A DNA stretch of 35,369 bases from an uncultured Prevotellaceae bacterium (lineage in GTDB: Bacteria > Bacteroidota > Bacteroidia > Bacteroidales > Bacteroidaceae), in contig CADCFA010000020.1 in assembly GCA_902800595.1 (NCBI GenBank), forward strand, positions 4,033 to 39,401. Direction: 5' to 3'. Position 1 is the stretch's first letter. Each line of letters begins with the position of its first letter. Shown here in pieces: positions 997 to 25,724 of this stretch. A program made the position numbers and the translations under genes. The notes below the pieces were generated by a model that worked only from the letters and a program-made list of their open reading frames with translations, had not been told where the DNA came from and made no database searches.

Positions 997-1680
997 ATGA
1001 AGAAAATTATTAAGATAGAGCAGAATAAAGATTTCTGCCAAACTATGACGTCGCTCGAGATTGCCGAGCTGACAGGTAAGCAACACAAACACTTGATGGA
1101 GGCCATCCGAAAGATGGAGCCTGCATGGGTGAAAGTACATGGGTCGAAATTTCGGCTGATGTTCCGAGAGGTAGCTATTGGTAATGGAGCGGTTCGTCGC
1201 GATCCCTGTTACCAACTCACCAAAACCGAGTGTCTTTACATCGCCACGAAGTTCAATGACGAGGCGCGTGCCAAGTTGGTGCTGCGCTGGGAGGAACTCG
1301 AACTGCAGGAACAGAAATGCCACCAGCAATTGGCCTTGCCCAGTCCGAAGCAAATCCTCGCTGCGGCGGACGAGATCATCGGCACGGGATTGCGACTGTT
1401 GAACGAACCCGCTGAGGACACGCTGACCGCCACGCAGGTAGCGAAGACGTTTAACATGACGGTCTTTGATTTCAACCATGTGCTTAGCGACATGGGCATT
1501 CAGTTCCGTCGCGATGGCCACTGGAACATCTCTGATGATCTCGCCAACCGCAATCTGGTGCGCATGCGTACACACGTCTCTTATTCGCTGAAAGGCAAGA
1601 AGAAAGTGAAGATCTATATGACGTGGACGCTTGATGGCGTGCGTTTCTTGAATTCCAAACTTGGTTATCCTAATTTCTAA
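997..1680 (+). CDS. Rha/KilAC phage-type antirepressor
   Basis: A 227-residue protein from ATG 997. An in-frame start at 931 is rejected because it falls inside the inverted repeat and adds residues unlike the family. The N-terminal part (about residues 15-100) matches the phage regulatory protein Rha family: MTSLEIAELTGKQHKHLMEAI, then a CYQLTKTECLYIATKF block and a RWEELE helix. The C-terminal part (about 120-227) matches the phage antirepressor KilAC domain: LTATQVAKTFNM, then an MGIQFRRDGHW block and a final TWTLDG strand. This two-domain arrangement is usual for prophage antirepressors. It lies between the OB-like gene and the primase, 7 bases before the latter, and may bind the repeats around 477-513. 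Confidence 0.8.
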   Translation: MKKIIKIEQNKDFCQTMTSLEIAELTGKQHKHLMEAIRKMEPAWVKVHGSKFRLMFREVAIGNGAVRRDPCYQLTKTECLYIATKFNDEARAKLVLRWEELELQEQKCHQQLALPSPKQILAAADEIIGTGLRLLNEPAEDTLTATQVAKTFNMTVFDFNHVLSDMGIQFRRDGHWNISDDLANRNLVRMRTHVSYSLKGKKKVKIYMTWTLDGVRFLNSKLGYPNF

Positions 1681-1687
1681 ATCGACT

Positions 1688-4030
1688 ATGAGCGTACATT
1701 ATGTTTATAAAAGGGATGGCGGCGCAAAGTTCATGCGCCCCATCCACACCCGCGAGGAATATCTGAGCCTACGCAACGGCGGTGAACAGATTCCTTTTGT
1801 GAAACGCATCAGGGCAGGTGAGGTGAAGTTGAAATCAGAGTTGGTGGAAATGAACTATTCCTGTCTGCCGAATGAGGACGGCAGTCTGAAAGGCTCGAAG
1901 ACGATGAGTACCACGGTGGGGATGGACATCGACCATCTATCGCCCGATGAGATGCCTGTAGTGCGCGAGCGTATCCTCAACAAGAAGGATGAACTGGGAC
2001 TGCTGATGCTGGAAGAGAGTGCCCGTGGCGGAGGCTATCATCTGGTGTTCAAGCGCCGTCCTGACCTGTCGCAAGAAGCGAATCTGAAGTGGGCCAGCGA
2101 TCTGCTGGAAGTCGCTTATGACTCTCAGGCCAAGGATATCACAAGGGTTTTCTTTACGACATCAGGCGATCAGTTGATTTATCTCGACGATGCGATCTTC
2201 GAGATTCAGGCAGCGGACTTAGTACTGGGGACAGACCCTAAGATTAATCCTTCGGCAGGCTCAGGAACCGTCTCAGAGACCGTGAGCGCTAAGCAGTTCC
2301 CGACGGATTATCACGGGATTCCGTTTACGGTGATCATCAAGAAGTACTGGGAGGTGAATAACCGAGGCTTTGAACCTACCGAGGGCGACCGCGATACACT
2401 GACCTATCAGTTGGCTTGCGACCTAAGGCATATCTGCGGACGTTCGTTCGAGTGGCTCGATCAGGGGTTCCCGTTGGAAGAGAAACGTGCGAAGATCAAG
2501 AGTGCGCTTGCGTCGGAGTTTAATGGGTTCCCAGTGAGGCTGAGGAATGTGTTGAATCTCTTGGCTGTGTCCCCTAAGTTCTTTGCAAAGCAAAGCGGCA
2601 TAGCCGAGCGAGGGGACGACAGGGGTCTGAACGAGGGAATTGATATCGATGATTGTTCAGACCCCCAACCCCCTAACTTAGGGGGCTTGAAGAAAATGCC
2701 AATGGGTATTAAAGAAAGTATCGATGCGGTGGGCCCTCAGTTGGCAATGCCGGTGGTGACGGCGATTTGTCCTTGTATCGGTACGCTGGCAACGGGCGTG
2801 ACGCTCGATGTTCACGGGCAGAAGAAGGGGCTGAACCTGATCTCGTACATCGCAGGTGATTTTGCCAGCGGCAAGGGCGGGATCGACCCAGTGGTGGAGG
2901 CTTGGATGAGTGAGGTGGCGGCACTCGACAAGATGTATCAGATGCAGGAAGACGAGTGGCGTGCCAAGAAACGGGCGGCGAAGAACAAGAAGGAACAGCC
3001 CGAGGAACCAAAACTGCCCGTGCGCTGTCTGACACTGAACAACACCGTTGCCAATCTCGCCGAGCGACTGGCTAATACAGAAGGTAAACATGCCTTTTCG
3101 TTCACTCCTGAGGCCGACACGGTGGCGCAGAAGTGGAAATCGACGATGAGCGACTTCTCGGTGATGCTGCGTCAGAGTTATGACGGTACTAAATATGAGC
3201 GTGAGGCCCGATCAGCAGATGCCGTGAATGTGCATATCGACAAACTGTTGTGGAACGTCACGATGTGCGGTACGCCCGATGCCCTTTATCGCGTGGTGAA
3301 CAACTACACCGACGGTTTCCAGAGCCGTATCGCCGTGGCGCGCACACCCGACAACACGTTTGCACCGCTGGAAGACAAGCCTTTCGTACTGACCGATCGC
3401 CAGCGCGAACGCATCCAGCAGATTGCTCACCTTCTGCCTTTGATGTATGGTGAGGTGGTGCTGCCGAAACTGGAGGCGAAAGGTCGTGAATGGGTGGAGC
3501 GTATCCGTCTGGAAACGATGAAGAACGACGATAGGACGAAAGCCCGTCAGCGTTTCCGAGTGTGTGTCACGGCTCAGCGCATGACCTGTTGTCTGATGCT
3601 CTGTAAGGTGTGCGAGACGTTGATTCAGAAGCACGGCCTGAATGGTGCCGAGACGCAATTAAAGCAAAATCCGAACCTGTGGAAAGAGATGTTGCTAAAG
3701 GCGCAGACACCCACGATGCTGGAGGCCTACGATGTAATAGCCGACTCGCTCATTGAAAATGCCCTTTACTTCTTCCGTGACCGTATTGAGAACGCTTTCA
3801 TGAGTCGTGACTATGCAGGCGGTCTGAGCGGGGAGCGACAGAAGCGTGGCAAGAATGATTCGATCTTTGAGCGACTGGATATCCAGTTCTCGTTCGAGCA
3901 GGCGATGCAGCATTCGGTTGCGGTAAAGGGTGCCAATGTGAACCACAACACCGTGCGGCAGATGCTGAAGAACTGGCGCAAGCAGGGGCTTGTGGTACAG
4001 GAAGAGGACGGGAATTATCGGAAGTTGTAA
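1688..4030 (+). CDS. BT4734-type primase fused to DUF3987 NTPase
   Basis: A 780-residue protein from ATG 1688, 7 bases after the previous stop; an in-frame ATG at 1661 overlaps the previous gene and is less likely. Residues 1-180 match the BT4734-like (VirE N-terminal) family, placed from memory in the archaeo-eukaryotic primase superfamily. The expected catalytic motifs are visible: D80-I-D82 in GMDIDHL, H118 in GGGYHLVF and D150 in KDITR. Residues about 340-760 match DUF3987, with a Walker A-like loop GDFASGKGG (390-398) that lacks the usual Ser/Thr. The linker near residues 327-333 is encoded by a G/C palindrome. A primase-helicase of this type would replicate a mobile element or plasmid; no integrase or capsid gene is nearby. 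Confidence 0.8.
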   Translation: MSVHYVYKRDGGAKFMRPIHTREEYLSLRNGGEQIPFVKRIRAGEVKLKSELVEMNYSCLPNEDGSLKGSKTMSTTVGMDIDHLSPDEMPVVRERILNKKDELGLLMLEESARGGGYHLVFKRRPDLSQEANLKWASDLLEVAYDSQAKDITRVFFTTSGDQLIYLDDAIFEIQAADLVLGTDPKINPSAGSGTVSETVSAKQFPTDYHGIPFTVIIKKYWEVNNRGFEPTEGDRDTLTYQLACDLRHICGRSFEWLDQGFPLEEKRAKIKSALASEFNGFPVRLRNVLNLLAVSPKFFAKQSGIAERGDDRGLNEGIDIDDCSDPQPPNLGGLKKMPMGIKESIDAVGPQLAMPVVTAICPCIGTLATGVTLDVHGQKKGLNLISYIAGDFASGKGGIDPVVEAWMSEVAALDKMYQMQEDEWRAKKRAAKNKKEQPEEPKLPVRCLTLNNTVANLAERLANTEGKHAFSFTPEADTVAQKWKSTMSDFSVMLRQSYDGTKYEREARSADAVNVHIDKLLWNVTMCGTPDALYRVVNNYTDGFQSRIAVARTPDNTFAPLEDKPFVLTDRQRERIQQIAHLLPLMYGEVVLPKLEAKGREWVERIRLETMKNDDRTKARQRFRVCVTAQRMTCCLMLCKVCETLIQKHGLNGAETQLKQNPNLWKEMLLKAQTPTMLEAYDVIADSLIENALYFFRDRIENAFMSRDYAGGLSGERQKRGKNDSIFERLDIQFSFEQAMQHSVAVKGANVNHNTVRQMLKNWRKQGLVVQEEDGNYRKL
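2669..2685 (+). repeat. REP-like palindrome inside coding sequence
   Basis: CCCCCTAACTTAGGGGG is a perfect 17-base palindrome around one central base, preceded by a second C-run (2662-2666). It is read in frame as a Pro/Gly-rich stretch between the primase and NTPase domains. Similar C5TAA...TTAG5 palindromes are known to me as dispersed repeats in many bacterial genomes. Confidence 0.6.
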
Positions 4031-9186: not shown

Positions 9187-12100
9187 ATGGATACAGGAAC
9201 TACGAACAATGACTTTTTCTATAGGCTGACATTCGGCGACATCATCGCTTTTGAAGGCAGGCAGCCCGAAGAGTTTATACTGGACCAGGGGATCCAAAAG
9301 GAAGTCTCCGACGATACCAATTGCTATAACCTACTGCTTCGTGGTATTAAGGTCAACCGTAAGATCTATCAGCCCACAGAGATAGAGGCTGAGATGGATT
9401 TCATGCAGGTTAATAATCGCGACACATACCATCAAGAGACTATTGCGCCACAGTTCGACGACGTAAGAAAACTGCTGTTGCAGAGAATGGTGACGCTCGA
9501 TATCGTGATAAGCAATACCGTGAGCAACGTTGTCAGGAACTGCTATGTGTATGAGATGATCCCCCAGCTGCTGAATGATGTCAACGGCACAAAGATGTAT
9601 GTGAAGTTGAGCATCTTCAGCATGGATAAACTGATGACCATCAACAAGTACAGCAAGGCATACGTAGCCCGTAAGCTCGGCTCTGAGATCCTGCAGCCGG
9701 AGAGCCTGTACTTCGGAATCGTGTCTGAAGGTGTCCCCTTGATAGAGTCCGACGTCAAAAGTCAACAGCATCTGATGTACAATGTGTCAGGCAACAATCT
9801 GGAGTTCATACAACCCTATCTGGTACAGTATAATGAGTCGTTCTATGACTTCCTGGTGCGCACGTCCAACCGCTGTGGAGAGTTCCTCTTCTTTGAGGAT
9901 GGCAAACTGGTGTTGGGCCTGCCTGACAGTTCCTTGCCTGATGCCATCGATAACTTTGTGACGGTGACAACCATGGAGAGGTCTCTCGACCCGCTGAAAA
10001 TCAATGGCTATGCCCGCGACAGCGTGAAAGACGGAAAAGGTATAGTGAAGGGGACTTCAGACGCCACAGGCGATGCATATCCCGAACTCAATATTTCAGC
10101 TATAGCCAAAGAGAAAACCGGTTTCCCCACAGATGCCTTCCCCGCCGCCACTTCGAGCAATGTCGAACAGGCTCAGGATGAATACATCTTCCCGCTTTAC
10201 GTAGGCAAGTTCACCAATAGACTCCGTGAGCTGAACTATGACGGCACGCCTGGTCAGGCAGCCTTGGCCAGAATGATGCCATTCACCAAGACCCTGTTGG
10301 GCAGTGAAATAGACGGAGCAGTAGGAGGAATTGCCCTTTTAGCGATAGAAGGACTCATAGGCGAAGCTATCCCAACCATGTTGGCTAATTTGAGGGTGCT
10401 CACGTTCAACGCTTCTCAGGCCGAGCGGTATATGGCTGTCGTGCAAGAGAATAGCGAACAATGCAGCGAAGAGAAAGCAGTGCAGTTCGGTACGCTGAAC
10501 AGTGACGGATGGACCACCCTGAACTACTATAAGGATATCCTTCAGCACGAAGAGGAACAGCAGCGGAAGATCGTGTGCATCAACATGGGCACCAACTATA
10601 TCAACGTGAAGTTAGGGCAGAAGATCAAGATCAAAGGCCTCAACGATACTTATGTCATCATTCAGATACAGCAGAACTCCGAGGAGGTCTGGGACCGCGA
10701 CTACGACAGATATGGCATGGTGGCTGATGACAAATATTCAGGCATGCGCTCGCTGAAGATCTATGCCATTCCCGCGTATGATGATGGCAAGAAGTTCATT
10801 CCTCCGGTACAACCGGTGCCTGTCGTCAGGAAGGTGGGACCTCAGGCAGCCTTCGTGACCGACAATGAAGACCCGAAGTTCCAGGGACGTGTGCGCATTG
10901 CCTTCCCATGGCAGTCACTAAAAGGTCCGGAAAGGCTCAAGCTGAAAGAAGTAGAAGGCAAACTTAAAAAGTTGGAGATTCAGGTCTTGACTCTTAAAGA
11001 AGAGGAGAGAATGCTTCTGGAAAAGGCGACAAAAGCCAAACAATATATCGAAGAGCTGAAGACATATGTAAAAGCCACGAAAGAAGAGCGTAAAGAACAG
11101 CTTCAGCCGAGGTATAGTAAAATTGAGGAACTTGAAAAAGATCTCGAGGAACTCAAGGCATTAAAGACCAGTACTGGCAGTCAGGACAAGGAAGCGAAGA
11201 TAAAAAAGATCAAGGAAGAGATAGCCGACTTTGAGGCGGCAGCCAAAGAGCACGATGAGAAGAAGGGCAAGGCCGGCTATAATGATCTTGAAAAGGATAA
11301 TACGGTCATCAGTAAGTATAAAAAAATCTATGTCAAGGAGAACAAGTCGTACCTGAAGGCAAATGCTGACTTGGAAAAGACCGAGGGTGAGAAAAAGGAT
11401 AAGCAGGGGGAAAGCAAGAAACTGCAGGAACGGATTGACAAGGAGGTGAATGCCATGGCGACGCCTTGGGTGCGCGTTGTCACGCCGATGGCTACACCAG
11501 GCGGTGGCACATTCTTCCGTCCCCGAGTAGGCGACGAGGTGCTGGTGAACTTTGAGAACGACAATGTGGAGCGTCCTTATGTCATGGGCAGCGTCTTCTC
11601 CAAGAACAACCTTACCCCCGACGAAAAGATGTATCGCCAGCGTGGCGTTGAGTTGCAAGGAAAAGATGTCTCCATATCGATGGTGTCACCCAACGGCCAT
11701 CATATCACCTTTACCGACCCCGAGGCTGGCACCAACTTCCTGGCCAATTTAATATCACCGGGATTGGGATTATGGGGATCGATAGTGGGAGCGCCATTCA
11801 ACAATCTCCTGCCAGGTGCCAAGGATCTGTCAGGTGGTATCCATATTGGTGACCGTTACGGGATGTACGAGATTGATATGAAGAGCCACAAGCGCTCCAT
11901 CGAAATCAACTCACCTTTTGGTACGGTGTCTATCAACGCCTTCTCGGGCATCACCATCAGTGCGCCCAACGGCAATGTCACCATTAGGGGTAAGAACATC
12001 AACCTGGAGGCAGGCAACAAGGTCAATATCCTCTCGGGACTGAATATCGAAGACCCTGGCTTGGGAGATCCGGATGGAAAGGCGAATCAAGCAGGTAAAA

Positions 12101-13347
12101 TCTTGACTGACCTTTTCGCCGAGATTGTCCCTGGAGAGCTCAATAAGTATATGTTCAGCTCTATAGTTGACCTGTCATATATCCGTCATGTCGTAGAGGT
12201 GTTCGTGCGCCCCGTGGACGGTACGTTGAAACTCAAGTCGAAGCGCTATCTGATGCTGGAGGCTGGTCAGGGCAATGCCACCATACGCCGTGACCGCTAT
12301 GCCAAGGCGGTGGAAGAAAAGAAGGAGTCGCAGGAGGAATTCTACAAGGCATTGCTCACCTGTGTGAAGTTCATCAGTGAGAAGGTTGATCTCTTCTACG
12401 ATACCTATGAGACGTTGTGGATAGACGGCTACAAGAAGAAGACCGAGTACCTTGAAAAGGCCGGATGGGTGTTGAAGGATGAGAAGCAACCTGACTTGGC
12501 TGAGATAGCATCAAAAGCCAATGAGTGGGACGATCAGAAGATTACCCAGGACACCTTTGAGAGTCATTTTGTTGAGACAGGTATTCTGTTCAGAGAAGGA
12601 GCGAAGCACAATCAGATTACAACCAGCCCCATCCTGAAGTTCGACTACATCAAGGATTCTGCAAGGGCCTTTGGCGAGAGTGCTTTCAAGATGTACCAAC
12701 ATATGGAGTCTTTCGATCGTTTCTTAAATGACGGCTCAGATCTTCCATTAGGCAAATTTCAGTGGATGGATAAAAACTTCTCAGCTGCGCTTATTGACCT
12801 GGATGAAAAGATCTTATGGGCAAAAGGCTGGAAAGCGGTATATAACGATGGTAATCAACATCAGCTTTTCAATGATTTGGATCCTAACCCCAAAGCAGAC
12901 AAGTTTGCGATGCAAAACAAAACATTCCACAAGCGCAAACTGCTGCTGGCTTTTATTAACGAGGTGGCTCATTCTCCGCAGAATGTTCAAAACAAGTACT
13001 TCGAGTGTAACCTCAAGATGGATTATGTGATGACGACTCAGTCACTTCGTCAGGAATATTATTGGAACCGTATGGTGGTCAACCTTGACAGAGACAAACG
13101 GCTCCAAAAAAGCCGCTACGGGCGCACGTTATGGGACAACACGTTGGGAATGATGTGGAATAAGATCAAGAGCAACTTTGTACCCTTCGACCGTGGCATT
13201 TGGAATGACAAGACCGACGGACAGATCCTCTTCTCCGACCATGAGAACTCAACCCTGAACTTCCAGGGCGAGGGTCTCCACGAGGAGAACAGTTCGAACA
13301 TCGGTACACTCGATCACCTGAAGAAAGAGCTCATGGCCATCAAGTAA
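9187..13347 (+). CDS. VgrG-type spike with coiled-coil insertion and C-terminal extension
   Basis: A 1386-residue protein. Residues 1-310 are the gp27-like base, with MDKLMTINKYSKAYVARKLG and the VQYNESFYDFLVRTSNRCGEF block typical of VgrG. The gp5-like OB domain opens at about 554-578 (VTDNEDPKFQGRVRIAFPWQ). It is interrupted by about 178 residues of Lys/Glu-rich coiled coil (579-756) and resumes with TPWVRVVTPMATPGGGTFFR (759 on) and RPYVMGSVF. Residues about 884-950 are short beta repeats of the needle. Residues about 1035-1386 are a mainly helical extension I do not recognise, which may be cargo or a docking domain. It would sit at the tip of a contractile injection apparatus, yet no other apparatus gene is in the window. 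It is the first gene of a six-gene unit. Confidence 0.8.
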   Translation: MDTGTTNNDFFYRLTFGDIIAFEGRQPEEFILDQGIQKEVSDDTNCYNLLLRGIKVNRKIYQPTEIEAEMDFMQVNNRDTYHQETIAPQFDDVRKLLLQRMVTLDIVISNTVSNVVRNCYVYEMIPQLLNDVNGTKMYVKLSIFSMDKLMTINKYSKAYVARKLGSEILQPESLYFGIVSEGVPLIESDVKSQQHLMYNVSGNNLEFIQPYLVQYNESFYDFLVRTSNRCGEFLFFEDGKLVLGLPDSSLPDAIDNFVTVTTMERSLDPLKINGYARDSVKDGKGIVKGTSDATGDAYPELNISAIAKEKTGFPTDAFPAATSSNVEQAQDEYIFPLYVGKFTNRLRELNYDGTPGQAALARMMPFTKTLLGSEIDGAVGGIALLAIEGLIGEAIPTMLANLRVLTFNASQAERYMAVVQENSEQCSEEKAVQFGTLNSDGWTTLNYYKDILQHEEEQQRKIVCINMGTNYINVKLGQKIKIKGLNDTYVIIQIQQNSEEVWDRDYDRYGMVADDKYSGMRSLKIYAIPAYDDGKKFIPPVQPVPVVRKVGPQAAFVTDNEDPKFQGRVRIAFPWQSLKGPERLKLKEVEGKLKKLEIQVLTLKEEERMLLEKATKAKQYIEELKTYVKATKEERKEQLQPRYSKIEELEKDLEELKALKTSTGSQDKEAKIKKIKEEIADFEAAAKEHDEKKGKAGYNDLEKDNTVISKYKKIYVKENKSYLKANADLEKTEGEKKDKQGESKKLQERIDKEVNAMATPWVRVVTPMATPGGGTFFRPRVGDEVLVNFENDNVERPYVMGSVFSKNNLTPDEKMYRQRGVELQGKDVSISMVSPNGHHITFTDPEAGTNFLANLISPGLGLWGSIVGAPFNNLLPGAKDLSGGIHIGDRYGMYEIDMKSHKRSIEINSPFGTVSINAFSGITISAPNGNVTIRGKNINLEAGNKVNILSGLNIEDPGLGDPDGKANQAGKILTDLFAEIVPGELNKYMFSSIVDLSYIRHVVEVFVRPVDGTLKLKSKRYLMLEAGQGNATIRRDRYAKAVEEKKESQEEFYKALLTCVKFISEKVDLFYDTYETLWIDGYKKKTEYLEKAGWVLKDEKQPDLAEIASKANEWDDQKITQDTFESHFVETGILFREGAKHNQITTSPILKFDYIKDSARAFGESAFKMYQHMESFDRFLNDGSDLPLGKFQWMDKNFSAALIDLDEKILWAKGWKAVYNDGNQHQLFNDLDPNPKADKFAMQNKTFHKRKLLLAFINEVAHSPQNVQNKYFECNLKMDYVMTTQSLRQEYYWNRMVVNLDRDKRLQKSRYGRTLWDNTLGMMWNKIKSNFVPFDRGIWNDKTDGQILFSDHENSTLNFQGEGLHEENSSNIGTLDHLKKELMAIK

Positions 13348-13371
13348 AGGTAAAAAGGTAAAAAAGGTAAG
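13342..13371 (+). repeat. Stop-codon-seeded GGTAAAAA repeats
   Basis: After AAG-TAA (stop at 13345-13347), three copies of GGTAAA(AA) fill the whole 24-base spacer up to the next ATG. Confidence 0.7.
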
Positions 13372-15336
13372 ATGGACTACATATTTAATGATTGGGAAGA
13401 GAAACTCTCGAATTTTGAGAGTAGCGTAGAGAAAGATCTGGCGGAGATCAGGAAGTGCAAGGCGGAGATGCAGCAGATGAAACTCGACGTGGTGGCTGAG
13501 TTGCAGAAGGGCCGCTATATACGTGATACCCAGCGGCTGGTGCTGTCGGCACCCGAGATCATCATCGGCAATGTGGACCGCAGCGGTACCCTCTTTGCCG
13601 GCGGTTCGAAGGTCATCGTCCGCGGCACCCAGGTGGGTGTCGAAGGTGCCGGTGAGGGAGGAAGCCTGGAGCTCCGGGCACCCAGCATCCGAGAGATTGC
13701 CGAAGACCCCGGCACCGACGGCCGCGAGCATGTAGTGGGGTCCGTGTCCGAGGTTGTGAGCCAGGCCCGTAACATCATCATCCAGAGCGACGATGCGGAA
13801 GGAGCCTTCTCTGCCCCCGCCGTCCCCACGGGCGGCAGCGGTGTGCGCATCCATGCCGACAAGACCATCGACGTGCATGCCGCCATGACGGCAGAGAGCC
13901 GTGAGGAACGCCTGTCAGACCTCATCAGCGCCACTGAGAAGCAGAAAGACTACCTGAAGGAGCAGGCTAGCGCCCATAAGGAGGCGTTCACGAATCTGAA
14001 GAAAGAAATGGAAGAGCTTTTGGAGAAGAGAGACAAATTGTCAGGCGACTATTCCGACGTCCGCACGAACTATAGGGACATCAGGAAAGTGTCTGAAGAG
14101 ATAGAAGCCCTCTCCATGTCGATTACCGAGGAGACCTATGCCTATGCGGAGATCCTGTCGATGCTGGCAGAGACCAACCGGAGGCTGCAGTGCTTCAAAA
14201 AGGAGAAGTCGAAGATCAAGAAGGGCGACGACTTCAAGAAGAAACCGACGGGTGCTGCTGTCAACATCACAGGTGAGAAAATCCAACTGGTGTCTGCCGA
14301 CGGAGAGCACAACCTGCGTGACAACGAGGGATCGGGTGTCACCATCGAGGCTAACACGGTGGGCATCACTTCCTTGGATAAGGAAGGTGCGCTGAACAAG
14401 GAAGGCAAGGTGCGCGTTGTGGCCAAGAACATTGAGATGGATACGGCAGGCGCGGCTGAATTGAAGTTCGACGATGAGGGTAAACTTGAGAAAGGCTCCT
14501 TTACTGCTGAGGGCGACTTCAAGTTGACATCGAAGAATATTACCATCGAGGCTGTTGATTATGAGGTGGCAGACAAGAAATATAAGGAGAAGAAGCTCAC
14601 TGACGACAGCAAGATCAAACTGCGTGCCAAGACCATCGAGGTATCTACCGAAAACTCCGCCAACATGGAGGTGGATGAGAAAGGCAAGATCACCAAGGCG
14701 AACTACACCTCGGAGGGTGACATCATCGTACACTCGAAGACCTTCACCATGGAGAGTGTCGATACAGACATAGAGAACGGCGAGGCCAAGGAGAAAGCCC
14801 TCACGGCAGAAAGCAAGGTGGTTATCCGTGCCGAGAAGACCGATGTATCGGCCACCGATACCGAAGGTAAGGCTACGGGCAGCGTGAACATCAATGCCAA
14901 GGCTGTCAGCCTGAAGTCGATGGATGTGGAGAAGGAGAAGCGCACCGACGACAAACTGGCGGAAGGCAGTACGATGACCATCGTGTCGGAGAAGATGTAC
15001 ATGGGTGCGAAGTCGAAGGATGTGAAGTCGAAGAAGGTGCAGGTGATGTCGGAGGAAATCGGTGCCTTTGCCGACAAGACGCTGGAGATCCAGCAGGACG
15101 AGGGCAAGGCCTTGGTGCAGCTCGACGGCGGCAATGCCTCTCTGGGCGGCAGCAAGACAGAGATCTACGGCAAGACCGAGGTGAAGGACGAACTGAAGTC
15201 GCCCAAGGCTACCATCGACAACATCGAGGCGAAGACATCGTTCAAGTCGCCTAACATCCAGGACGGCATGGGTGCCGGCGGTGGCGGTGGCAGCCTGAGT
15301 GCAAAGCTGAAGACAGAAGATGCCCCGAAAGAGTGA
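13372..15336 (+). CDS. Beta-solenoid and coiled-coil protein paired with the spike
   Basis: A 654-residue protein with no signal peptide. Residues 1-45 are helical. Residues 50-180 have short Gly/Val/Ile strand repeats like a VgrG needle (VLSAPEIIIGN, SKVIVRG, NIIIQSD). Residues about 185-290 are a coiled coil. Residues about 300-620 are a second solenoid that includes two clear 68-residue repeats and a degenerate third. The tail is Gly-rich and charged. The architecture mirrors the neighbouring spike (solenoid plus coiled coil), so the two may co-assemble, this one extending or sheathing the needle. It starts 24 bases after the spike gene. I know no named family for the whole protein; a structural or effector-carrier role is inference. 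Confidence 0.6.
   Translation: MDYIFNDWEEKLSNFESSVEKDLAEIRKCKAEMQQMKLDVVAELQKGRYIRDTQRLVLSAPEIIIGNVDRSGTLFAGGSKVIVRGTQVGVEGAGEGGSLELRAPSIREIAEDPGTDGREHVVGSVSEVVSQARNIIIQSDDAEGAFSAPAVPTGGSGVRIHADKTIDVHAAMTAESREERLSDLISATEKQKDYLKEQASAHKEAFTNLKKEMEELLEKRDKLSGDYSDVRTNYRDIRKVSEEIEALSMSITEETYAYAEILSMLAETNRRLQCFKKEKSKIKKGDDFKKKPTGAAVNITGEKIQLVSADGEHNLRDNEGSGVTIEANTVGITSLDKEGALNKEGKVRVVAKNIEMDTAGAAELKFDDEGKLEKGSFTAEGDFKLTSKNITIEAVDYEVADKKYKEKKLTDDSKIKLRAKTIEVSTENSANMEVDEKGKITKANYTSEGDIIVHSKTFTMESVDTDIENGEAKEKALTAESKVVIRAEKTDVSATDTEGKATGSVNINAKAVSLKSMDVEKEKRTDDKLAEGSTMTIVSEKMYMGAKSKDVKSKKVQVMSEEIGAFADKTLEIQQDEGKALVQLDGGNASLGGSKTEIYGKTEVKDELKSPKATIDNIEAKTSFKSPNIQDGMGAGGGGGSLSAKLKTEDAPKE
14407..14878 (+). 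repeat. 68-residue tandem protein repeats
   Basis: Unit 1 (residues 346-413, bases 14407-14610) and unit 2 (414-481, 14611-14814) align over their full 68 residues without gaps. Shared positions include K-x-x-x-x-A-K-x-I-E at the start and an EK-x-LT-x-x-S end. A third copy starts at 14815 and diverges after about 20 residues. The period is 204 bases. Confidence 0.75.
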
Positions 15337-15368
15337 AAGTGAAAAGTGAAGAGTGAAAAGTGAATAGT
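15331..15368 (+). repeat. Stop-codon-seeded GTGAAAA repeats
   Basis: GAG-TGA (stop at 15334-15336) starts a run of AGTGAAA/GAGTGAA copies that fills the spacer up to the ATG at 15370. Here the stop is TGA and the repeat carries TGA, in contrast to the TAA-based repeats elsewhere. Confidence 0.75.
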
Positions 15369-15369
15369 T

Positions 15370-16065
15370 ATGAATAATTATATTACATTTGAGTTAACTG
15401 ACCTTGCGAAGAAGTTGAAGGGCTATGTCATGCTGTTCAACTATCGACTGTCAAACCTCTGTGTCAAGGCAGAACCTACCGCCCTGATGCCCGTATCGGT
15501 CTTTGTGGCCGACACGGAGTACAATCTGGAAGAAGTGGCAAACATCATGAGACCCGACGATTTCTCCTTCGATGTCTATCCAAAGAACCAGAACAATCTG
15601 CAGGAGGTCATTGGCGGCATCTTCGAAGCGCATCCGGAGTTCAAGATGGAACTGAAGATTGATAAGGCAGAGCATGAGGGAGGGGAGGATAAAAGCCATC
15701 TGCTCTATACCATGCCGCCGGTGGACAAGAACCGCCGCAAACTGCTGGATGAGACAGCCAAGATCTTCCACAAGGAGTGCAAGGTTAACCTGGATGCCAC
15801 TTATGCTGAACTGCAGCCAAGACTCGTTGAGGCATACGCCAAGATGCCTGTTCTAGAAATCGACGAGGCGAGGAAAGCCTTCAAGAAGGCTTATGATACT
15901 GCGAGGGATCAGTGTGACAAGATGCTGGAGCAGAAGCAAAACGAGATTGAGGAGGGCTACCAGCGCTACCTGAATGAGTACAACGACCAGTATGATGAAT
16001 CAGATGCGGATAACAGCGAGATGGAGATCTCTCACGATTCCGAGATCGAGGCACTTTTCAATTAA
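15370..16065 (+). CDS. Degenerate ribosome-recycling-factor-like protein
   Basis: A 231-residue protein. Residues 24-196 can be aligned by eye to ribosome recycling factor over nearly its whole length. EYNLEEVANIMRPDDFSFDV corresponds to the strand region around the hinge and TMPPVDKNRRKLL to the conserved PPLTEERRK-L. The helix EIDEARKAFKKAYD and the ending KMLEQKQNEIEEG match the C-terminal helix. The residues that contact rRNA are lost: the R-TGRA stretch reads LCVKAEP (30-36), and RNIRR reads NLDATYA (140-146). An extra insertion lies at about 97-110 and an acidic tail at 207-231. It is therefore unlikely to recycle ribosomes. Position between spike and signalling genes suggests an adaptor, chaperone or regulator. 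Fold assignment is good by eye but not computed. Confidence 0.65.
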   Translation: MNNYITFELTDLAKKLKGYVMLFNYRLSNLCVKAEPTALMPVSVFVADTEYNLEEVANIMRPDDFSFDVYPKNQNNLQEVIGGIFEAHPEFKMELKIDKAEHEGGEDKSHLLYTMPPVDKNRRKLLDETAKIFHKECKVNLDATYAELQPRLVEAYAKMPVLEIDEARKAFKKAYDTARDQCDKMLEQKQNEIEEGYQRYLNEYNDQYDESDADNSEMEISHDSEIEALFN

Positions 16066-16086
16066 TGAGATAAATGTGTAAACAAA

Positions 16087-16497
16087 ATGAATAATGATTT
16101 TAAAGTATCAAAAAACGGTACGGCACTGATTATCACTCTTGGCAGGGATCTTATCACTTCCAATGCACCAGTATTGCAGGAAGAGCTCGCCAAGTTTATG
16201 GGCGAGAATATAGAGAAAGTTGTTTTCGATGCCTCTGAGTTGATGGCACTCTCTAGTAGTGGTCTCAGGGTGGTTTACTTTGCCAAACAAAGGTTGGGCA
16301 ATCAACCAGAAATCGTCTTCGTGAACTGTGCCAAGGAGATTTATAATACACTCAAGATGATCGGTCTTGCTCCCTCTATCAAGTTTCTGAAGGTTGACAA
16401 TAAGAAAGTAGTACGCAGCCAGAAGTCACTTGATGAATTCTCTGCCAACAACGATGTGGTGTGTTACTCCATGCGACTGGGACAAGACGATGATTAA
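16087..16497 (+). CDS. STAS-domain anti-sigma factor antagonist-like protein
   Basis: A 136-residue protein whose first 110 residues form a STAS domain of the RsbV/SpoIIAA type. The phosphoacceptor loop reads A-L-S56-S57-S58-G59-L. The usual D-S-S/T-G motif has its Asp replaced by Ser56, and Ser58 is the probable phosphorylated residue. In partner switching, the unphosphorylated form binds the HATPase kinase (encoded next, 18 bases on) and frees that kinase's other partner. A short polar tail (about 111-136) is extra. The antagonist, kinase and phosphatase genes lie together, so the switch is complete apart from its output. Confidence 0.85.
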   Translation: MNNDFKVSKNGTALIITLGRDLITSNAPVLQEELAKFMGENIEKVVFDASELMALSSSGLRVVYFAKQRLGNQPEIVFVNCAKEIYNTLKMIGLAPSIKFLKVDNKKVVRSQKSLDEFSANNDVVCYSMRLGQDDD

Positions 16498-16515
16498 CGA
16501 ATATGCTTTGAGGCT

Positions 16516-16911
16516 ATGACCAGATTGCATTTTCAACCTATTCAGGGCAAGGCGCTTGACATCATTGAAACCATCATCAAGCATGAAGAGGTGGCATCGG
16601 CAGACGACCTCTACAAAAAGCTCTACGTGGTGGTAGAAGAGATTGTGCTGAATATTGTTGATTATTCCAATTCTGACTATCTCGATGTGGAAATCATGCG
16701 TGACGAAAAGAGCATCACACTGCGTTTCCGCGATGCAGGCAAGCCGTTTAACCCGCTTGAAAAAGAGAAACCGGATTTCACCTTGCCGCTGGAAGACCGT
16801 AAGATCGGAGGACTTGGCATCTTCTTGGTTATCAAGTATATGGATTCAGTGACTTACGAACACTCGGGAGGCGAGAATGTACTGACGGTGGTGAAAAATG
16901 TAAAAATGTAA
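16516..16911 (+). CDS. RsbW-like HATPase serine kinase (anti-sigma type)
   Basis: A 131-residue GHKL ATPase-fold protein. The N box is E42-I-V-L-N46, the G1 box D73-A-G-K-P-F and the G2 box G98-G-L-G101, so ATP binding is likely intact. Proteins of this type phosphorylate the STAS partner and sequester another protein, classically a sigma factor. No sigma factor gene is nearby, so the target is open; the spike-linked proteins are possible. The C-terminal residues KNVKM and the stop come from an ATGTAAAA repeat. Confidence 0.85.
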   Translation: MTRLHFQPIQGKALDIIETIIKHEEVASADDLYKKLYVVVEEIVLNIVDYSNSDYLDVEIMRDEKSITLRFRDAGKPFNPLEKEKPDFTLPLEDRKIGGLGIFLVIKYMDSVTYEHSGGENVLTVVKNVKM

Positions 16912-16925
16912 AAATGTAAAAATTA
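16891..16925 (+). repeat. Stop-codon-seeded ATGTAAAA repeats
   Basis: Three copies of AATGTAAAA overlap the end of the HATPase gene (stop TAA at 16909-16911) and run to 5 bases before the next ATG. The first copies are translated as the protein's last residues. Confidence 0.75.
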
Positions 16926-16929
16926 AAAT

Positions 16930-17778
16930 ATGTCATATCTAAGTAAGATTTTCAATATTATCGCAGGCTCTGGCCTGCTGGCACTTGGTTATAGCCACTA
17001 CCGTACCCTGCGAGAGCTGAAGCGACTCCGTAAGGCAAACACAGAAAAGAGTCGCATTACTTCCGAGTTGCATCTGGCAAGTCAGATACAGCAGAGCATG
17101 ATGCCTATTGGACATAAGGTCTTTGACAAAGTGGATATTTACGGAACACTGTTACCCGCCCGTGAGATGGGTGGTGACCTGTTCGACCATATGATTCGTG
17201 ACGGGAAGTTCTACTTCTGTGTGGGCGACGTCTGTGGCAAGGGAGCCCCCGCCGCCATGCTCATGGCGTATGCCCACTCGCTGTTGTGGACTTTCTCACG
17301 CGACGAAAGCAATCCTGCCCGTATCATACAATCCCTCAATGAGGTGGCTAGCAAGGATAATATCTCTTGTGCGTTCTTCACCCTCTTCTTCGGTGTGCTC
17401 GACCTGACGACAGGTCATCTGCAATACTGTAATGCAGCTCACAATCCACCTTATATATTAAGTGATAAGCTCACGATGCTTGATTGTGACCCCAACCAGC
17501 CCATCGGCCCGATGGAGGATGTGGAATTTACCCTGCAGGAGACCACGCTGACTCCTGGCAGCACTATCTTCCTCTATACCGACGGACTGACTGAGGCAAA
17601 CAATACGAAAAAAGAGGAATTTGGAACGGAACGTGCTCAAAAGGTGCTGGAAGACTGCATGAAGAAGCAGTTGAAACCCCAGGAGATTGTCGACGCCGTC
17701 ACAGAAGCGGTGCATCATTTTGCCATGAATGCCGAACAAAGCGACGACCTGACCATGCTTGCCATCCGTTACCAGTAG
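16930..17778 (+). CDS. Membrane-tethered RsbU/SpoIIE-type PP2C phosphatase
   Basis: A 282-residue protein with one probable membrane helix (residues 5-21), a basic coiled linker (25-58) ending in the LASQIQQSMMP motif usual before RsbU catalytic domains, and a SpoIIE-type PP2C domain. Metal-binding motifs are intact: GGD at 81-83, GDVCGKG at 99-105, YTDGLTEA and S271-D-D-L-T. It would dephosphorylate the STAS protein encoded two genes upstream, setting the switch. No large sensor domain is present, so the input may come through the membrane helix or a partner protein. It is the last gene of the six-gene unit. Confidence 0.85.
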   Translation: MSYLSKIFNIIAGSGLLALGYSHYRTLRELKRLRKANTEKSRITSELHLASQIQQSMMPIGHKVFDKVDIYGTLLPAREMGGDLFDHMIRDGKFYFCVGDVCGKGAPAAMLMAYAHSLLWTFSRDESNPARIIQSLNEVASKDNISCAFFTLFFGVLDLTTGHLQYCNAAHNPPYILSDKLTMLDCDPNQPIGPMEDVEFTLQETTLTPGSTIFLYTDGLTEANNTKKEEFGTERAQKVLEDCMKKQLKPQEIVDAVTEAVHHFAMNAEQSDDLTMLAIRYQ

Positions 17779-18454: not shown

Positions 18455-19573
18455 ATGTTTATCGAACAGCTACCTGCAGCGTACACGTTGCTTTTCGTGC
18501 TTTACGGCGGATCAGCATTTACGGCTCTCATCGCCTGCCTTTACCTCTGCTTGCGCAAAGGTAATGCCATCGCGCCTGGCACCACACCGCCGACTTCGTT
18601 GCGCCGCTGGGCTGCCGCTTTATTTGGCTTAGCGTTTCTGAGCCATGTGTGGTGGCTTCTGTTCTACGTCTTTTCCAACGATCTCTATTCGGTGTTCTTG
18701 CTGGTGGTTGCGGTGATCGACTACGTGGGACTGCTGATCTCTATCGGTGGCTCGATGTTTGCGATGCTGCAGGATCGTAAGCGACCAGTCTGGCCCCTTG
18801 CAGTCGCCATGATCCCCTATGCGGCAATTCTCACCTTGAATGTGGCCTTTCCCAAAGATTATTTCTTGCAACTCGCCATTGGCTACCTTATGTCTGTCTT
18901 CTTGTGCTTTTCTATATATATGGTGTTTGCCGTCAGTCAATATAAGCATTGGCTGCGCGACAATTATGCCGATCTGGAGCATAAAGAGGTGTGGGTAAGT
19001 CATGTGCTGATCTTGATCGTCCTGTTATTATTCACTTTCGGCGAGATCGATGGTGTTAGTCTGACCATTAGCTATATCGTGAGGCTCATCGAAATCCCCT
19101 TGTTCTTCTTCCTGTTGTGGCGAGTAGAGACTCTGCCCCAATTGGAGAGTGCGCCCATTGAACAGCAACTGGAAGAACCACTGTCGGTGGAACCGGAACC
19201 GCAGCAGCAGAAGTCCCTGGCCATCCCCTCCAATATCGAAAAGTTGTTGGAAGAGCGCTGTGTGGGCCCGAAACTCTACCTGCAGCACGATTTGAGCCTT
19301 CTTCAGCTGGCTCAGGTTGTTGGTACCAACCGCTTTTATCTCAGCCAGTATTTCTCCCGTCAGGGCATCACATACAATGCCTATATCAACAACCTCCGCA
19401 TCAACCACTTCATCAGTCTCTATCATGAGGCTGTCGCCAGCCAGCGCCCCGTTGCGGCTCAGCAGCTGGCTCACGAAAGCGGTTACCGTAGTTACAGCAC
19501 TTTCAGTCTTGCGTTCAAGCAGCGTATGGGTCAGAGCGTAACGGCTTGGATACGCCACTCCCAGGATGCGTAA
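18455..19573 (+). CDS. Membrane-anchored AraC-family regulator
   Basis: A 372-residue protein with about six or seven hydrophobic helices in residues 10-225 and an AraC-type DNA-binding domain at about 265-370. The first helix-turn-helix is SLLQLAQVVGTNRFYLSQYF; the second is AQQLAHESGYRSYSTFSLAFKQRMG. A Pro/Glu/Gln-rich linker joins the two parts. Such regulators sense a membrane or envelope signal and act on DNA from the membrane. Likely targets include nearby genes: a bipartite GATTTTGAAAC element lies just after the gene, before the PAP2 gene. Confidence 0.85.
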   Translation: MFIEQLPAAYTLLFVLYGGSAFTALIACLYLCLRKGNAIAPGTTPPTSLRRWAAALFGLAFLSHVWWLLFYVFSNDLYSVFLLVVAVIDYVGLLISIGGSMFAMLQDRKRPVWPLAVAMIPYAAILTLNVAFPKDYFLQLAIGYLMSVFLCFSIYMVFAVSQYKHWLRDNYADLEHKEVWVSHVLILIVLLLFTFGEIDGVSLTISYIVRLIEIPLFFFLLWRVETLPQLESAPIEQQLEEPLSVEPEPQQQKSLAIPSNIEKLLEERCVGPKLYLQHDLSLLQLAQVVGTNRFYLSQYFSRQGITYNAYINNLRINHFISLYHEAVASQRPVAAQQLAHESGYRSYSTFSLAFKQRMGQSVTAWIRHSQDA

Positions 19574-22970: not shown

Positions 22971-23006
22971 CAATAACCGTTAAACAATAACCAATAACCG
23001 TTAACC
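22971..23006 (-). repeat. Stop-codon-seeded GGTTAAC/GGTTATTG repeats
   Basis: On the - strand, the greA end GGT-TAA is followed by copies of CGGTTATTG and GTTTAACGGTTATTG that fill the gap up to the HIT start. It is a different base sequence from the A-rich repeats but follows the same rule of copying the stop context. Confidence 0.7.
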
Positions 23007-23468
23007 GACGGTAATTTTGTCAATACGTAACTTGATGGTGCCACGGGGAATCTTCACTTCCACCTCGTCGCCCACCTTGTGGTTCAGCAGACCCTGAGCA
23101 ATCGGGGTCTTGATAGAGATCTTGCCTTCGCGGAGGTTGGCTTCGCTCTCACTCACGATGGTATAGGTCATCTTCGCCTTGTTGGTGAGGTTGGTCATCT
23201 CCACCTTCGACAGGATCTGCACGGCATCGGTGCTGAGACGAGAGGTGTCAACAACCTTTGCTTCGGCAATCGTCATCTTCAGACGGTTGATCTTATCCTC
23301 CAAATGAGCCTGAGCCTCTTTGGCGGCATCATACTCAGAGTTCTCACTGAGGTCACCTTTCTCACGAGCCTCAGCAATGGCGGCAGAGGCCTTTGGGCGC
23401 TCCACACTCTCCAGTTGTTTGAGTTCGGCTACCAGCTTGTCGTAGCCTTCTTGTGACATATAAGCCAT
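23001..23468 (-). CDS. greA: Transcription elongation factor GreA
   Basis: A 155-residue protein of normal GreA length. The N-terminal coiled coil carries the acidic tip motif in EKGDLSENSEYDAA, and the C-terminal globular domain has the TPIAQGLLNHKVGDEV block. GreA rescues backtracked RNA polymerase by stimulating transcript cleavage. It lies first in a greA-HIT unit. The leader of about 120 bases holds a hairpin. Confidence 0.95.
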   Translation of the reverse strand: MAYMSQEGYDKLVAELKQLESVERPKASAAIAEAREKGDLSENSEYDAAKEAQAHLEDKINRLKMTIAEAKVVDTSRLSTDAVQILSKVEMTNLTNKAKMTYTIVSESEANLREGKISIKTPIAQGLLNHKVGDEVEVKIPRGTIKLRIDKITVG

Positions 23469-23525
23469 AATTTATACCTTTTTATTGTTTTACTTTTCGT
23501 AACTTTGATAGACATAAAACAAAGA

Positions 23526-23552
23526 ATTCCGACAAAGTTGTCGTGTCGGAAT
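23526..23552 (-). promoter_or_regulatory. Hairpin in the greA leader, possible attenuator
   Basis: ATTCCGACA (23526-23534) pairs with TGTCGGAAT (23544-23552). On the - strand the stem is followed by TTCTTTGTTTTA, a U-rich tail. It lies between the greA promoter and start codon, so it could end some transcripts early; it could also terminate readthrough from the PAP2 gene. Confidence 0.55.
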
Positions 23553-23592
23553 CCTTGCTTCTAATATGTCGTATCCTTACTTAATCTGAGTG

Positions 23593-23623
23593 CAAAGATA
23601 GACATTATTTCTGAATCAAACAA
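23593..23623 (-). promoter_or_regulatory. Promoter of greA-HIT
   Basis: On the - strand: TTG (complement of 23621-23623), 20 bases, TATCTTTG (complement of 23593-23600). It lies directly after the PAP2 stop codon, 125 bases upstream of greA. Confidence 0.75.
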
Positions 23624-23642
23624 ATTTTAAGCTGAAAAAATG

Positions 23643-24608
23643 CTAATAATGTCTTTTCGATACCGTCCAATAGGTCTGTAGCACGATGTAAAACAACACG
23701 GCAGACAGCCAGCCGGCAATCACATCGATGGCGTAATGGGCGCGGATATAGACGGTGGCAAAGCACATCAGCACGTAAAAGGGCAGGAGGATGTAGAACA
23801 GCGGACGGCTCTTGGCGCGCCAGGCAAGAAGCATCACCACGGTGCCGATGCCGACATGACTGCTGGGGAAGGCAGCTGTGGGGCGTTCGCCTGCCTCGTG
23901 GGCACTGACGATACACTGGTAGAAGAACCCCTCGCTGTTGCCAGGCATAATAAGCATCTCATCGTGTGTCAGGAAGTAGTCTTTCACATTGGGGAAGATG
24001 CCATTGGCAATATGCTCCATGCCTGCTGCCAGATAGTAGTATTGCGGACCCGTGACAGGCAGGAAGATAAAGATGATATAATAGAGGAAGAACGCCCCCA
24101 GGATGACGAATGCCGTGCGCTGGAATTCTGCGTACCGGCAGAAAAAGTAAAAGAGCGTTACGGTAGCAATCATCGGGAAGTAGGAGGCATAACCTAGATA
24201 CATCAGCTCACTGAAGATAGGGTTGTCGATGGTCTGTGGAAAGAGTAGGGCAGGCTGGCAGCCGAAGATCCCTTGTTCATAGCTGGCAAAGAGGTGGTCG
24301 AGGTTCGGGAAGAGCTTGTTAAACTCATAGGTCTCGGAATACCACCAGCCGAGTAGGAGCAGTTGCAGACAGACACGGAAGAGGAGCGTGAAGCGACAAG
24401 GCACCATCCGATAGACAGCCCAGAGGGCGGCAGTCGTAGCCACGATTCTCGCACGTCCCCAGATCATGTCCTCAGGATGGGAGAGCTTCGTATAGGTGAA
24501 GAATGTGATTAGCAGTGTCAACACCAAATACCCTAAGACAACCCACTCACAGGTGAGCAGACCTTTATGGGGCTTTTTCTCTATCTCGAATAGCTTTAAA
24601 CCTTTCAT
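23643..24608 (-). CDS. Inner-membrane PAP2-family phosphatase/transferase
   Basis: A 321-residue protein with about six hydrophobic helices and no cleaved signal. The catalytic blocks are ERPTAAFPSSHVG and RAHYAIDVIAG, as in PAP2 proteins and in the related inositol-phosphorylceramide/sphingomyelin synthase group; the wide spacing and the Y-rich central loop lean slightly to the latter. Substrate is probably a lipid phosphate or lipid head group. It follows the epimerase gene by 10 bases, so the two work in one unit, possibly in lipid or glycan assembly. Confidence 0.75.
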   Translation of the reverse strand: MKGLKLFEIEKKPHKGLLTCEWVVLGYLVLTLLITFFTYTKLSHPEDMIWGRARIVATTAALWAVYRMVPCRFTLLFRVCLQLLLLGWWYSETYEFNKLFPNLDHLFASYEQGIFGCQPALLFPQTIDNPIFSELMYLGYASYFPMIATVTLFYFFCRYAEFQRTAFVILGAFFLYYIIFIFLPVTGPQYYYLAAGMEHIANGIFPNVKDYFLTHDEMLIMPGNSEGFFYQCIVSAHEAGERPTAAFPSSHVGIGTVVMLLAWRAKSRPLFYILLPFYVLMCFATVYIRAHYAIDVIAGWLSAVLFYIVLQTYWTVSKRHY

Positions 24609-24618
24609 TGCTCGCTCT

Positions 24619-25614: not shown

Positions 25615-25632
25615 TTTTCTTTATTTTGGGTG

Positions 25633-25640
25633 CAAAGGTA
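25633..25640 (-). promoter_or_regulatory. -7 element for the epimerase gene
   Basis: CAAAGGTA is TACCTTTG on the - strand, 18 bases before the ATG. No clear -33 element. It is divergent from the promoter at 25659-25691. Confidence 0.6.
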
Positions 25641-25658
25641 CATATTTTTTGGGAAAAG

Positions 25659-25691: not shown

Positions 25692-25724
25692 CGCATCGAA
25701 AGAAACAAATATTGACGCAAAAAG

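What the first reader, a model, noticed from the sequence alone, without database searches (positions are those of the whole stretch)
9187..17778. Spike, solenoid, RRF-like protein and partner-switching trio in one operon
Six + strand genes with gaps of 18-33 bases link a VgrG-type spike, a second needle-like protein, a degenerate RRF relative and a complete STAS/HATPase/PP2C switch. Seen directly: gene order, spacing and motifs. Known: VgrG proteins tip contractile injection systems, and partner switching usually controls sigma factors but can control other outputs. Inference: the switch may set assembly, loading or firing of an injection-type device, with the RRF-like protein as adaptor or switch target. 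No sheath, tube, baseplate or ClpV gene is in the window, so this may be an undescribed accessory module.
Basis: partly seen in the sequence, partly recalled or inferred. Interest (0 to 1): 0.85.

Follow-up and report, generated by a model that had tools for sequence, protein, structure and literature searches.

The report
Spike island with ribosome-factor-like partner
A bacterium related to gut Prevotella carries a spare tip for its protein harpoon (type VI secretion system) together with a repurposed ribosome-recycling protein and a phosphorylation on/off switch; the same pairing recurs in its relatives and was not found described in the papers searched.

Summary
The six-gene operon is real at the stated coordinates. 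It is an accessory spike island of a distinctive Bacteroidales type VI secretion system (T6SS). The sheath, tube, baseplate and ClpV genes missing from the window lie on another contig of the same genome, which holds four VgrG-needle-RRF triads. In 398 genus genomes, RRF-like genes and one sheath class go together (26 both, 5 RRF-like only, 1 sheath class only).

Most likely the RRF fold serves as a dedicated spike chaperone or adaptor and the partner switch licenses use of that spike. Both functions are inferred; no interaction was tested. In passing, the main locus carries an E1/E2/ubiquitin-like/RING set.

The parts
9187..13347 (+). VgrG-type spike protein, 1386 aa
   Evidence: PF04717 OB domain at residues 750-804, 63.5 bits; NCBIfam VgrG-related 64.6 bits, below its cut-off of 275; 57 sequences of 1100 aa or more, window included, aligned
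10939..11436 (+). charged, coiled-coil-looking insert of VgrG before the OB domain (residues 585-750)
   Evidence: 43 K/R and 38 D/E in 166 residues; least conserved stretch of the family, residues 601-750 at occupancy 0.38-0.47; coiled coil inferred from sequence only
13372..15336 (+). second needle-like protein, 654 aa, conserved partner of VgrG
   Evidence: 56 sequences, 45% mean column identity; immediately upstream of the RRF-like gene in 49 of 50 orphan islands; no family over cut-off; only weak profile similarity to the VgrG beta-helix region; no structure model obtained
15370..16065 (+). RRF-fold protein, 231 aa, acidic paralogue of ribosome recycling factor
16087..16497 (+). STAS protein with a conserved C-terminal tail (NDVVCYxMKLGQ type)
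   Evidence: PF01740 47.1 bits; Ser57 conserved in 44 of 44 STAS relatives of the fetched loci; tail pattern NDVV.Y.M found only in STAS ORFs, 16 of them, among the 4516 ORFs
16255..16257 (+). codon of Ser57, predicted phospho-acceptor of the STAS protein
   Evidence: S57 in 44 of 44; its role is by analogy with SpoIIAA/RsbV (recalled)
16516..16911 (+). RsbW-type HATPase (predicted serine kinase)
   Evidence: PF13581 62 bits; N46, D73, G75, G98, G99, G101 conserved in 16 of 16
16930..17778 (+). SpoIIE/RsbU-type PP2C phosphatase, 282 aa
   Evidence: PF07228 169.5 bits; D218, D272, D273 in 47 of 47; D83 and D100 in 43 of 47. N-terminal segment only mildly hydrophobic (best 19-residue mean 1.32), so membrane anchoring is unsure

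Best explanation
This is an orphan (accessory) spike island of a distinct Bacteroidales T6SS. VgrG and the second needle protein form an alternative tip for the machine encoded on contig C1 (shown: gene content and conserved linkage; inferred: assembly). The RRF-fold protein is a duplicated ribosome recycling factor that most likely no longer works on the ribosome and was recruited as a dedicated cytoplasmic chaperone or adaptor. It would hold or load the VgrG-needle tip, as DUF2169 proteins are proposed to do for VgrG-PIPY tips elsewhere (inferred). The HATPase phosphorylates Ser57 of the tailed STAS protein and the PP2C removes the phosphate (residues shown, reaction inferred). Sister phosphatases at other islands carry Cache, HAMP or receiver input domains. 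The phosphorylation state then licenses this particular spike. Most likely it does so by freeing or capturing a target that acts on production, loading or firing, in the way BtrU/V/W govern Bordetella type III secretion. The target is not identified.
For: Four VgrG and four RRF-like genes at the same four places of the genome, each with one of its seven PP2C matches within 10 kb (about 2e-4 for the three other islands if PP2C genes were placed uniformly). Main T6SS locus on C1: TssC (334.7 bits), DUF4280 PAAR-like (98.8 bits), and, below the curated cut-offs, ClpV, TssK, TssE and TssF; two Hcp-like ORFs. Of 72 RRF-like ORFs the needle is directly upstream in 49 of 50 orphan and 11 of 22 main copies. 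Co-occurrence with one TssC class in 398 genomes: 26 both, 5 RRF-like only, 1 TssC class only, 366 neither (Fisher p 1e-34, relatedness not corrected). RRF fold; R28, R30, R131, R134 of frr lost; net charge median -19 against +1 for the true frr; true frr separate on C42, 222 bits. Switch genes at 42 of 50 orphan against 4 of 22 main copies; with loci that show F0/g160 tube-type genes counted as main, 39 of 43 against 7 of 29, and the 4 orphan ones without a switch show at most two genes upstream before the contig end. The label 'orphan with switch' needs 9 changes on the RRF tree, at least 5 forced by well supported branches. Switch residues intact. Input domains: PDC/Cache in L017 and L019, HAMP in L018 and L019, receiver in L083. 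Precedents: PMC7498569 (passages), PMC11883445 (abstract and start of introduction).
Against: No interaction, expression or secretion data. Switch modules of the same kind also stand without a spike (L104-L110), and HATPase relatives are widespread in the genus (89 of 150 genomes at E<=1e-15), so linkage alone does not prove control of the spike. Many islands lack a HATPase: 11 of 50 orphan islands have all three genes (fused HATPase domains not counted). 8 of 50 orphan triads have no switch gene in reach, and some main-type loci do have switch genes. The RRF-like family keeps some RRF features: R111 in 60 of 61, a basic residue at R33 (K in 61 of 61), K179 in 61 of 61. 5 of 31 RRF-like genomes showed no matching TssC. 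No effector was recognised. The needle could not be modelled.
Confidence: 0.6

Rival explanations
1. The partner switch acts only on transcription: it frees an unlinked sigma factor or another regulator that turns on the island (and other genes), and has no direct business with the spike or RRF-like protein.
For: Classical RsbU/V/W output (recalled); an AraC-type regulator follows the operon in the window at 18455-19573, and members of the same sequence cluster (F9) lie near the triad in L033, L034, L038 and L040 (these members were not scanned with Pfam); the same kind of switch occurs elsewhere without a spike.
Against: No sigma factor among the 28 window ORFs scanned with Pfam; in the window the switch genes come last in the same gene string; the AraC-type genes are not a constant part of the islands.
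Confidence: 0.28
2. Hitchhiking: spike islands simply insert next to signalling operons, or share transfer routes with them, and there is no functional link.
For: In the L076-L083/L094 clade the triad sits inside a module that also exists without it (STAS, receiver-PP2C, WD40-like protein, sensor kinase, outer-membrane protein).
Against: 42 of 50 orphan against 4 of 22 main copies (p 1.5e-7); several different arrangements and input domains; repeated changes on the tree; 9 of 11 full-length tailed STAS genes in 150 genus genomes lie at an RRF-like locus.
Confidence: 0.1
3. The RRF-like protein still acts on ribosomes: either it tunes translation of the large spike mRNAs, or it is a cargo delivered to disturb ribosomes of the target cell.
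For: Complete two-domain RRF fold; R111 kept in 60 of 61, K at R33 in 61 of 61, K179 in 61 of 61.
Against: R28 and R30 replaced in 61 of 61 (N 61; C 59), R131 changed to D/E in 58 of 61; net charge median -19; up to 7 matches per genome (G713, G743), and the copies in the fetched loci stand beside a needle gene; an invariant HPE motif in a stretch that thermophilic RRF lacks.
Confidence: 0.07

Closest known systems
T6SS subtype iii of Bacteroidota (GA1-GA3; PMC4714493, PMC10781749, passages read)
   Same: TssC of PF17541, ClpV-type ATPase, Hcp-like, PAAR-like, VgrG and a TssE/F/K set on one contig
   Different: Sheath scores form a separate class (332-354 bits against 750+ for the G016 type and 418-446 for the G059 type); VgrG of about 1150-1510 aa with insert, a second needle and an RRF-fold protein; no Pfam match to a TssN/O/P/Q/R model (that such models exist is recalled) among the C1 ORFs scanned
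DUF2169 spike chaperones (PMC11883445; abstract and start of introduction read)
   Same: Small protein strictly linked to a non-canonical VgrG tip; proposed role of keeping the tip secretion-competent
   Different: Different fold: DUF2169 is reported as a novel fold, here it is the ribosome recycling factor fold; function not tested
Bordetella BtrU/BtrV/BtrW partner switch (PMC7498569, PMC8256260; passages read)
   Same: SpoIIE phosphatase, STAS protein and RsbW-type kinase controlling a secretion machine
   Different: Bordetella: type III system with a sigma factor in the locus; here: T6SS spike islands, no sigma factor among the ORFs scanned, switch genes repeated from island to island
Ribosome recycling factor (frr)
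   Different: Several arginines lost, acidic, multicopy, linked to VgrG; the true frr is a separate gene

Membership tests
T6SS (subtype iii) spike island | VgrG with gp5-type OB domain | tested here: met
   PF04717 63.5 bits
T6SS (subtype iii) spike island | Sheath, ClpV, tube, baseplate in the same genome | tested here: met
   C1: TssC 334.7 bits, DUF4280 PAAR-like 98.8 bits; ClpV 501.8, TssK 31.1 and TssE 31.5 bits (NCBIfam) and TssF 19.7 bits (Pfam), these four under their curated cut-offs; two Hcp-like ORFs named from sequence and a profile match to an ORF of the G016 locus
T6SS (subtype iii) spike island | TssN/O/P/Q/R membrane complex | tested here: inconclusive
   No Pfam match at E<=0.01 for the C1 ORFs; profiles of the main-locus families F4, F10, F11 did not match ORFs of the G016 stretch at E<=1; distant homologues not excluded
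T6SS (subtype iii) spike island | Secretion or killing through this spike | not testable with these tools
   needs an experiment
Ribosome recycling factor | RRF two-domain fold | tested here: met
Ribosome recycling factor | Ribosome-contacting arginines (E. coli R129/R132 and helix 1; role and numbering recalled) | tested here: not met
   R131 to D/E in 58 of 61, R28 to N in 61 of 61, R30 to C in 59 of 61, R134 not conserved; R33 is K in 61 of 61 and R111 is kept in 60 of 61
Ribosome recycling factor | Single housekeeping gene | tested here: not met
   four RRF-like copies (three over the Pfam cut-off) plus a true frr (222 bits) elsewhere
RsbU/RsbV/RsbW partner switch | STAS with phospho-acceptor Ser | tested here: met
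   S57 44 of 44
RsbU/RsbV/RsbW partner switch | HATPase with N, G1 and G2 boxes | tested here: met
   16 of 16
RsbU/RsbV/RsbW partner switch | PP2C metal-binding aspartates | tested here: met
   D218, D272, D273 47 of 47; D83, D100 43 of 47
RsbU/RsbV/RsbW partner switch | Cognate sigma factor in the locus | tested here: not met
   none among the 28 window ORFs scanned; an unlinked one is not excluded, and the Bordetella and other non-canonical cases show that other outputs exist

The most novel reading that the evidence does not exclude
A T6SS subtype in which a ribosome recycling factor was turned into an obligatory spike component, and in which each accessory spike carries its own serine-phosphorylation partner switch, so that the cell chooses by environmental signal which tip to mount on one shared machine ('per-spike licensing'), with the tailed STAS protein as the hand that touches the spike or its RRF-fold chaperone.
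Probability: 0.3. Interest if true: 0.88.

Novelty: new variant of a known kind. Interest (0 to 1): 0.74.

Why it matters
How a T6SS with several VgrG spikes decides which one to load is, to my knowledge, open. Here accessory spikes come with their own candidate decision module. Prevotella sp. ne3005, whose record title does not mark it as a MAG and which is therefore probably a cultured isolate, has both a main locus (L047) and a switch-linked island (L084), so the question could be tested by gene removal. A translation factor recruited as a secretion-spike protein would also be a rare change of function for RRF.

Tried and rejected
Ordinary sigma-factor regulon in the locus: no sigma factor domain in the 28 scanned window ORFs. 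Second frr: rejected by residues, charge, copy number and linkage. Phage origin of the RRF-like gene: a scan of viral contigs with A3 gave 35 pattern matches and no relative by tblastn. Needle as part of VgrG: hhalign of three needle parts against four VgrG parts gave at best probability 38.6 with the beta-helix region, inconclusive; the PDB profile search gave mostly coiled-coil look-alikes, best E 5e-4. Internal repeats of the needle: a self-BLAST gave only the full-length match. Bacteroides-type promoter pattern: the 6 matches lie at or before 7620 or from 21364 on, so none inside the operon; sigma-70-type and terminator scans near chance. Broader distribution: 1 of 393 order genomes at E<=1e-15 (the own one; the listing names two other members of the genus in that draw). 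One search used the true frr in a wrong orientation; that row was dropped and the alignment remade. VIA-align rows beyond RRF (designed bundles, CorA) were taken as common arrangements.

In print: T6SS + partner switching + Bacteroid (one paper, PMC9296628, passages read, unrelated: its T6SS count is none and its 'partner switching' is a coral term); VgrG + ribosome recycling factor + T6SS (none); T6SS/partner switching/anti-sigma factor antagonist/STAS (15 of 113 papers listed; of these PMC10418997 was looked at by passages, where the switch concerns FliA/FlgM, and PMC9239204 was not opened); T6SS + Prevotella + rumen + VgrG (one paper, by title unrelated, not opened); RRF + VgrG + spike (8 of 75 listed, none of the 8 holds 'ribosome recycling factor'). 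The library holds open-licence PMC papers only, so absence there is weak evidence.

Full report
Observation. The six + strand genes exist as described, with gaps of 24, 33, 21, 18 and 18 bases. Pfam supports VgrG (PF04717), RRF (PF01765, over its cut-off), STAS, HATPase_c_2 and SpoIIE; the second protein has no family over cut-off in Pfam or NCBIfam and only a weak unnamed hit in PHROGs.

Where it lies. The window is part of contig C20 of a 2.37 Mb, 79% complete genome. That genome has four VgrG matches and four RRF-like matches at the same four places (C1, C4, C20, C26), and each of the four places has one of the seven SpoIIE-type PP2C matches within 10 kb. The true frr is on C42 (222 bits). 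Contig C1 also carries the main T6SS locus: TssC of PF17541 and a DUF4280 PAAR-like protein, with ClpV, TssK and TssE and TssF recognised below the curated cut-offs, and two Hcp-like ORFs. The absence of sheath and tube from the window is therefore a matter of gene location.

Relatives. One scan of genome contigs with the four RRF-like proteins gave 63 loci, titled Prevotella, Prevotellaceae, Bacteroidaceae, Muribaculaceae or Bacteroidales. Most titles mark a MAG or an uncultured bacterium, several naming ruminant gut sites; Prevotella sp. ne3005 is not so marked. Among 72 RRF-like ORFs of 100 aa or more (window, own paralogues and these loci; near-copies not removed), 50 are orphan and 22 are at a main T6SS locus by my rule of T6SS genes within reach. 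The needle gene is directly upstream in 49 of 50 orphan and 11 of 22 main copies; in 10 of the other 11 main copies a PAAR-like and/or PEGA gene stands between, and L068 is rearranged. The complete six-gene order of the window is found in L033, L035, L036 and L038; L034, L037 and L039 agree up to a contig end.

Tie to a T6SS class. In 398 genus genomes the RRF-like gene is found in 31 and PF17541 TssC in 61. The TssC scores fall into groups: 750-768 bits, 418-446 bits and 332-354 bits, plus a few partial or second matches. The last group has 27 genomes, 26 of them RRF-positive. Exceptions: RRF-like without that class G086, G686, G730 (a 95-residue match at a contig start; this genome has the 436-bit class), G775, G785; class without RRF-like G766 (76% complete, 310 contigs). 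G616 carries both the 432-bit and the 337-bit class. A first pass with 150 of these genomes gave 12 of 13. In a draw of 393 order genomes only the own genome scored. The p-value of 1e-34 is not corrected for relatedness.

The switch. Any of STAS, PP2C or HATPase lies within 7 genes upstream or 5 downstream in 42 of 50 orphan and 4 of 22 main copies (Fisher p 1.5e-7, near-copies included). If loci with the tube-type F0/g160 genes before VgrG are counted as main, the figures are 39 of 43 and 7 of 29, and the 4 orphan triads without a switch show at most two genes upstream. In one search, 11 orphan islands have all three genes, 25 STAS and PP2C, 4 PP2C only, 2 STAS only and 8 none. Some PP2C proteins carry a fused HATPase domain, so the trio count is a lower bound. 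Arrangement varies: STAS upstream of VgrG, or STAS (with or without HATPase) downstream of the RRF-like gene. Of the island-linked phosphatases scanned, L017 and L019 carry a PDC/Cache sensor, L018 and L019 HAMP and L083 a receiver. On an RRF tree of 70 rows (ORFs of 200 aa or more, F0/g160 loci counted as main) the label 'orphan with switch' needs 9 changes, at least 5 forced by well supported branches, against 23.3 in shuffles. It is thus clustered by descent, yet was gained or lost several times. Catalytic and phospho-acceptor residues are intact.

Tailed STAS and spike-less switches. The window's STAS belongs to a type with a conserved tail (NDVVCYxMKLGQ). In 150 genus genomes 11 full-length members score 171 bits or more; 9 lie at an RRF-like locus and 2 (G136:C112, G136:C46) do not. 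Tail-less relatives with a HATPase and/or PP2C stand without a spike in the 9-14 kb looked at in G007, G018, G082, G083 and G088 (G007 and G082 have no RRF-like gene). None of the 24 ORFs of L104 and L106-L110 that were scanned with Pfam is a sigma factor (L105 and some other ORFs were not scanned). A citrate-type transporter precedes the switch in L106, L108 and L109. HATPase relatives at large are common (89 of 150 at E<=1e-15), but the close form (170 bits or more, 12 matches) is in 9 genomes, 7 of them among the 13 RRF-positive ones. The own genome has a stand-alone close HATPase on C13 (186 bits), which could serve islands that lack one (inference).

Mechanism and verdict. Shown: gene content, linkage, co-occurrence, fold, residue changes, intact switch residues. 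Inferred: VgrG plus needle as alternative tip, RRF fold as its chaperone, serine switch as licence for that tip. A partner switch that governs a secretion machine is known for Bordetella type III secretion (PMC7498569 and PMC8256260, passages). My searches for the same with T6SS in Bacteroidetes, and for VgrG with ribosome recycling factor, found no such report in the library (what was opened is told under Tried and rejected). I rate it a new variant of a known kind (T6SS subtype iii) with a new spike-linked component and a recurrent switch.

Limits.

Noticed in passing
L023:5370-16175 (own contig C1) and main loci among L059-L085: The main T6SS locus carries a whole ubiquitin-like conjugation set: ThiF/E1 (12 loci), E2-like protein with the HPNIR...VC(L/I)N cysteine motif (10 of 10; Pfam UQ_con E 8e-6 but just under cut-off in the own genome), a 105-107 aa ubiquitin-like protein ending PDP(F/I)PG (11 of 11; named from sequence) and a membrane protein with a RING-like C..C...C.H..H..CW motif (8 of 8). 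In the 35 kb of the G059-type locus only the E2-like profile matched. One literature search listed two papers, neither opened. This may be worth a finding of its own.
   Followed up: partly
L104-L110 (G007:C13, G082:C41, G136:C112, G136:C46, G018:C308, G083:C9, G088:C136): Related STAS/HATPase/PP2C modules without a spike. The PP2C of L104 has a receiver domain; a citrate-type transporter stands in L106, L108 and L109; L107 sits beside two Ser/Thr protein kinase genes.
   Followed up: partly
L109 (G083:C9) against window 23004-28232: The spike-less switch of G083 lies between an epimerase/PAP2/GreA string and an RNase R-type gene; the window has the same GreA, PAP2, epimerase and RNase R-type genes in the same order to the right of the spike operon. 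Possibly a shared neighbourhood where switches or islands land.
   Followed up: no
L066 (three triads in a row), L045 and L055 (two each): Tandem VgrG-needle-RRF triads, some with extra or missing members, as if spikes are amplified in place.
   Followed up: no
L103:2100-2498 (own C13) and L102:5512-6879 (own C22): Stand-alone close HATPase among genes that read like amino-acid biosynthesis (names from sequence), and a second HATPase-STAS pair beside a LuxR-type regulator.
   Followed up: partly
window 931-4030: Phage-type Rha/KilAC regulator and a DUF3987 protein some 5 kb left of the operon; possible mobile element remnant.
   Followed up: no
L021:6538-10942 (own C3): Another PP2C and a STAS gene of this genome stand either side of a 705-aa protein that reads like a glycan enzyme (name from sequence), with no spike.
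   Followed up: no
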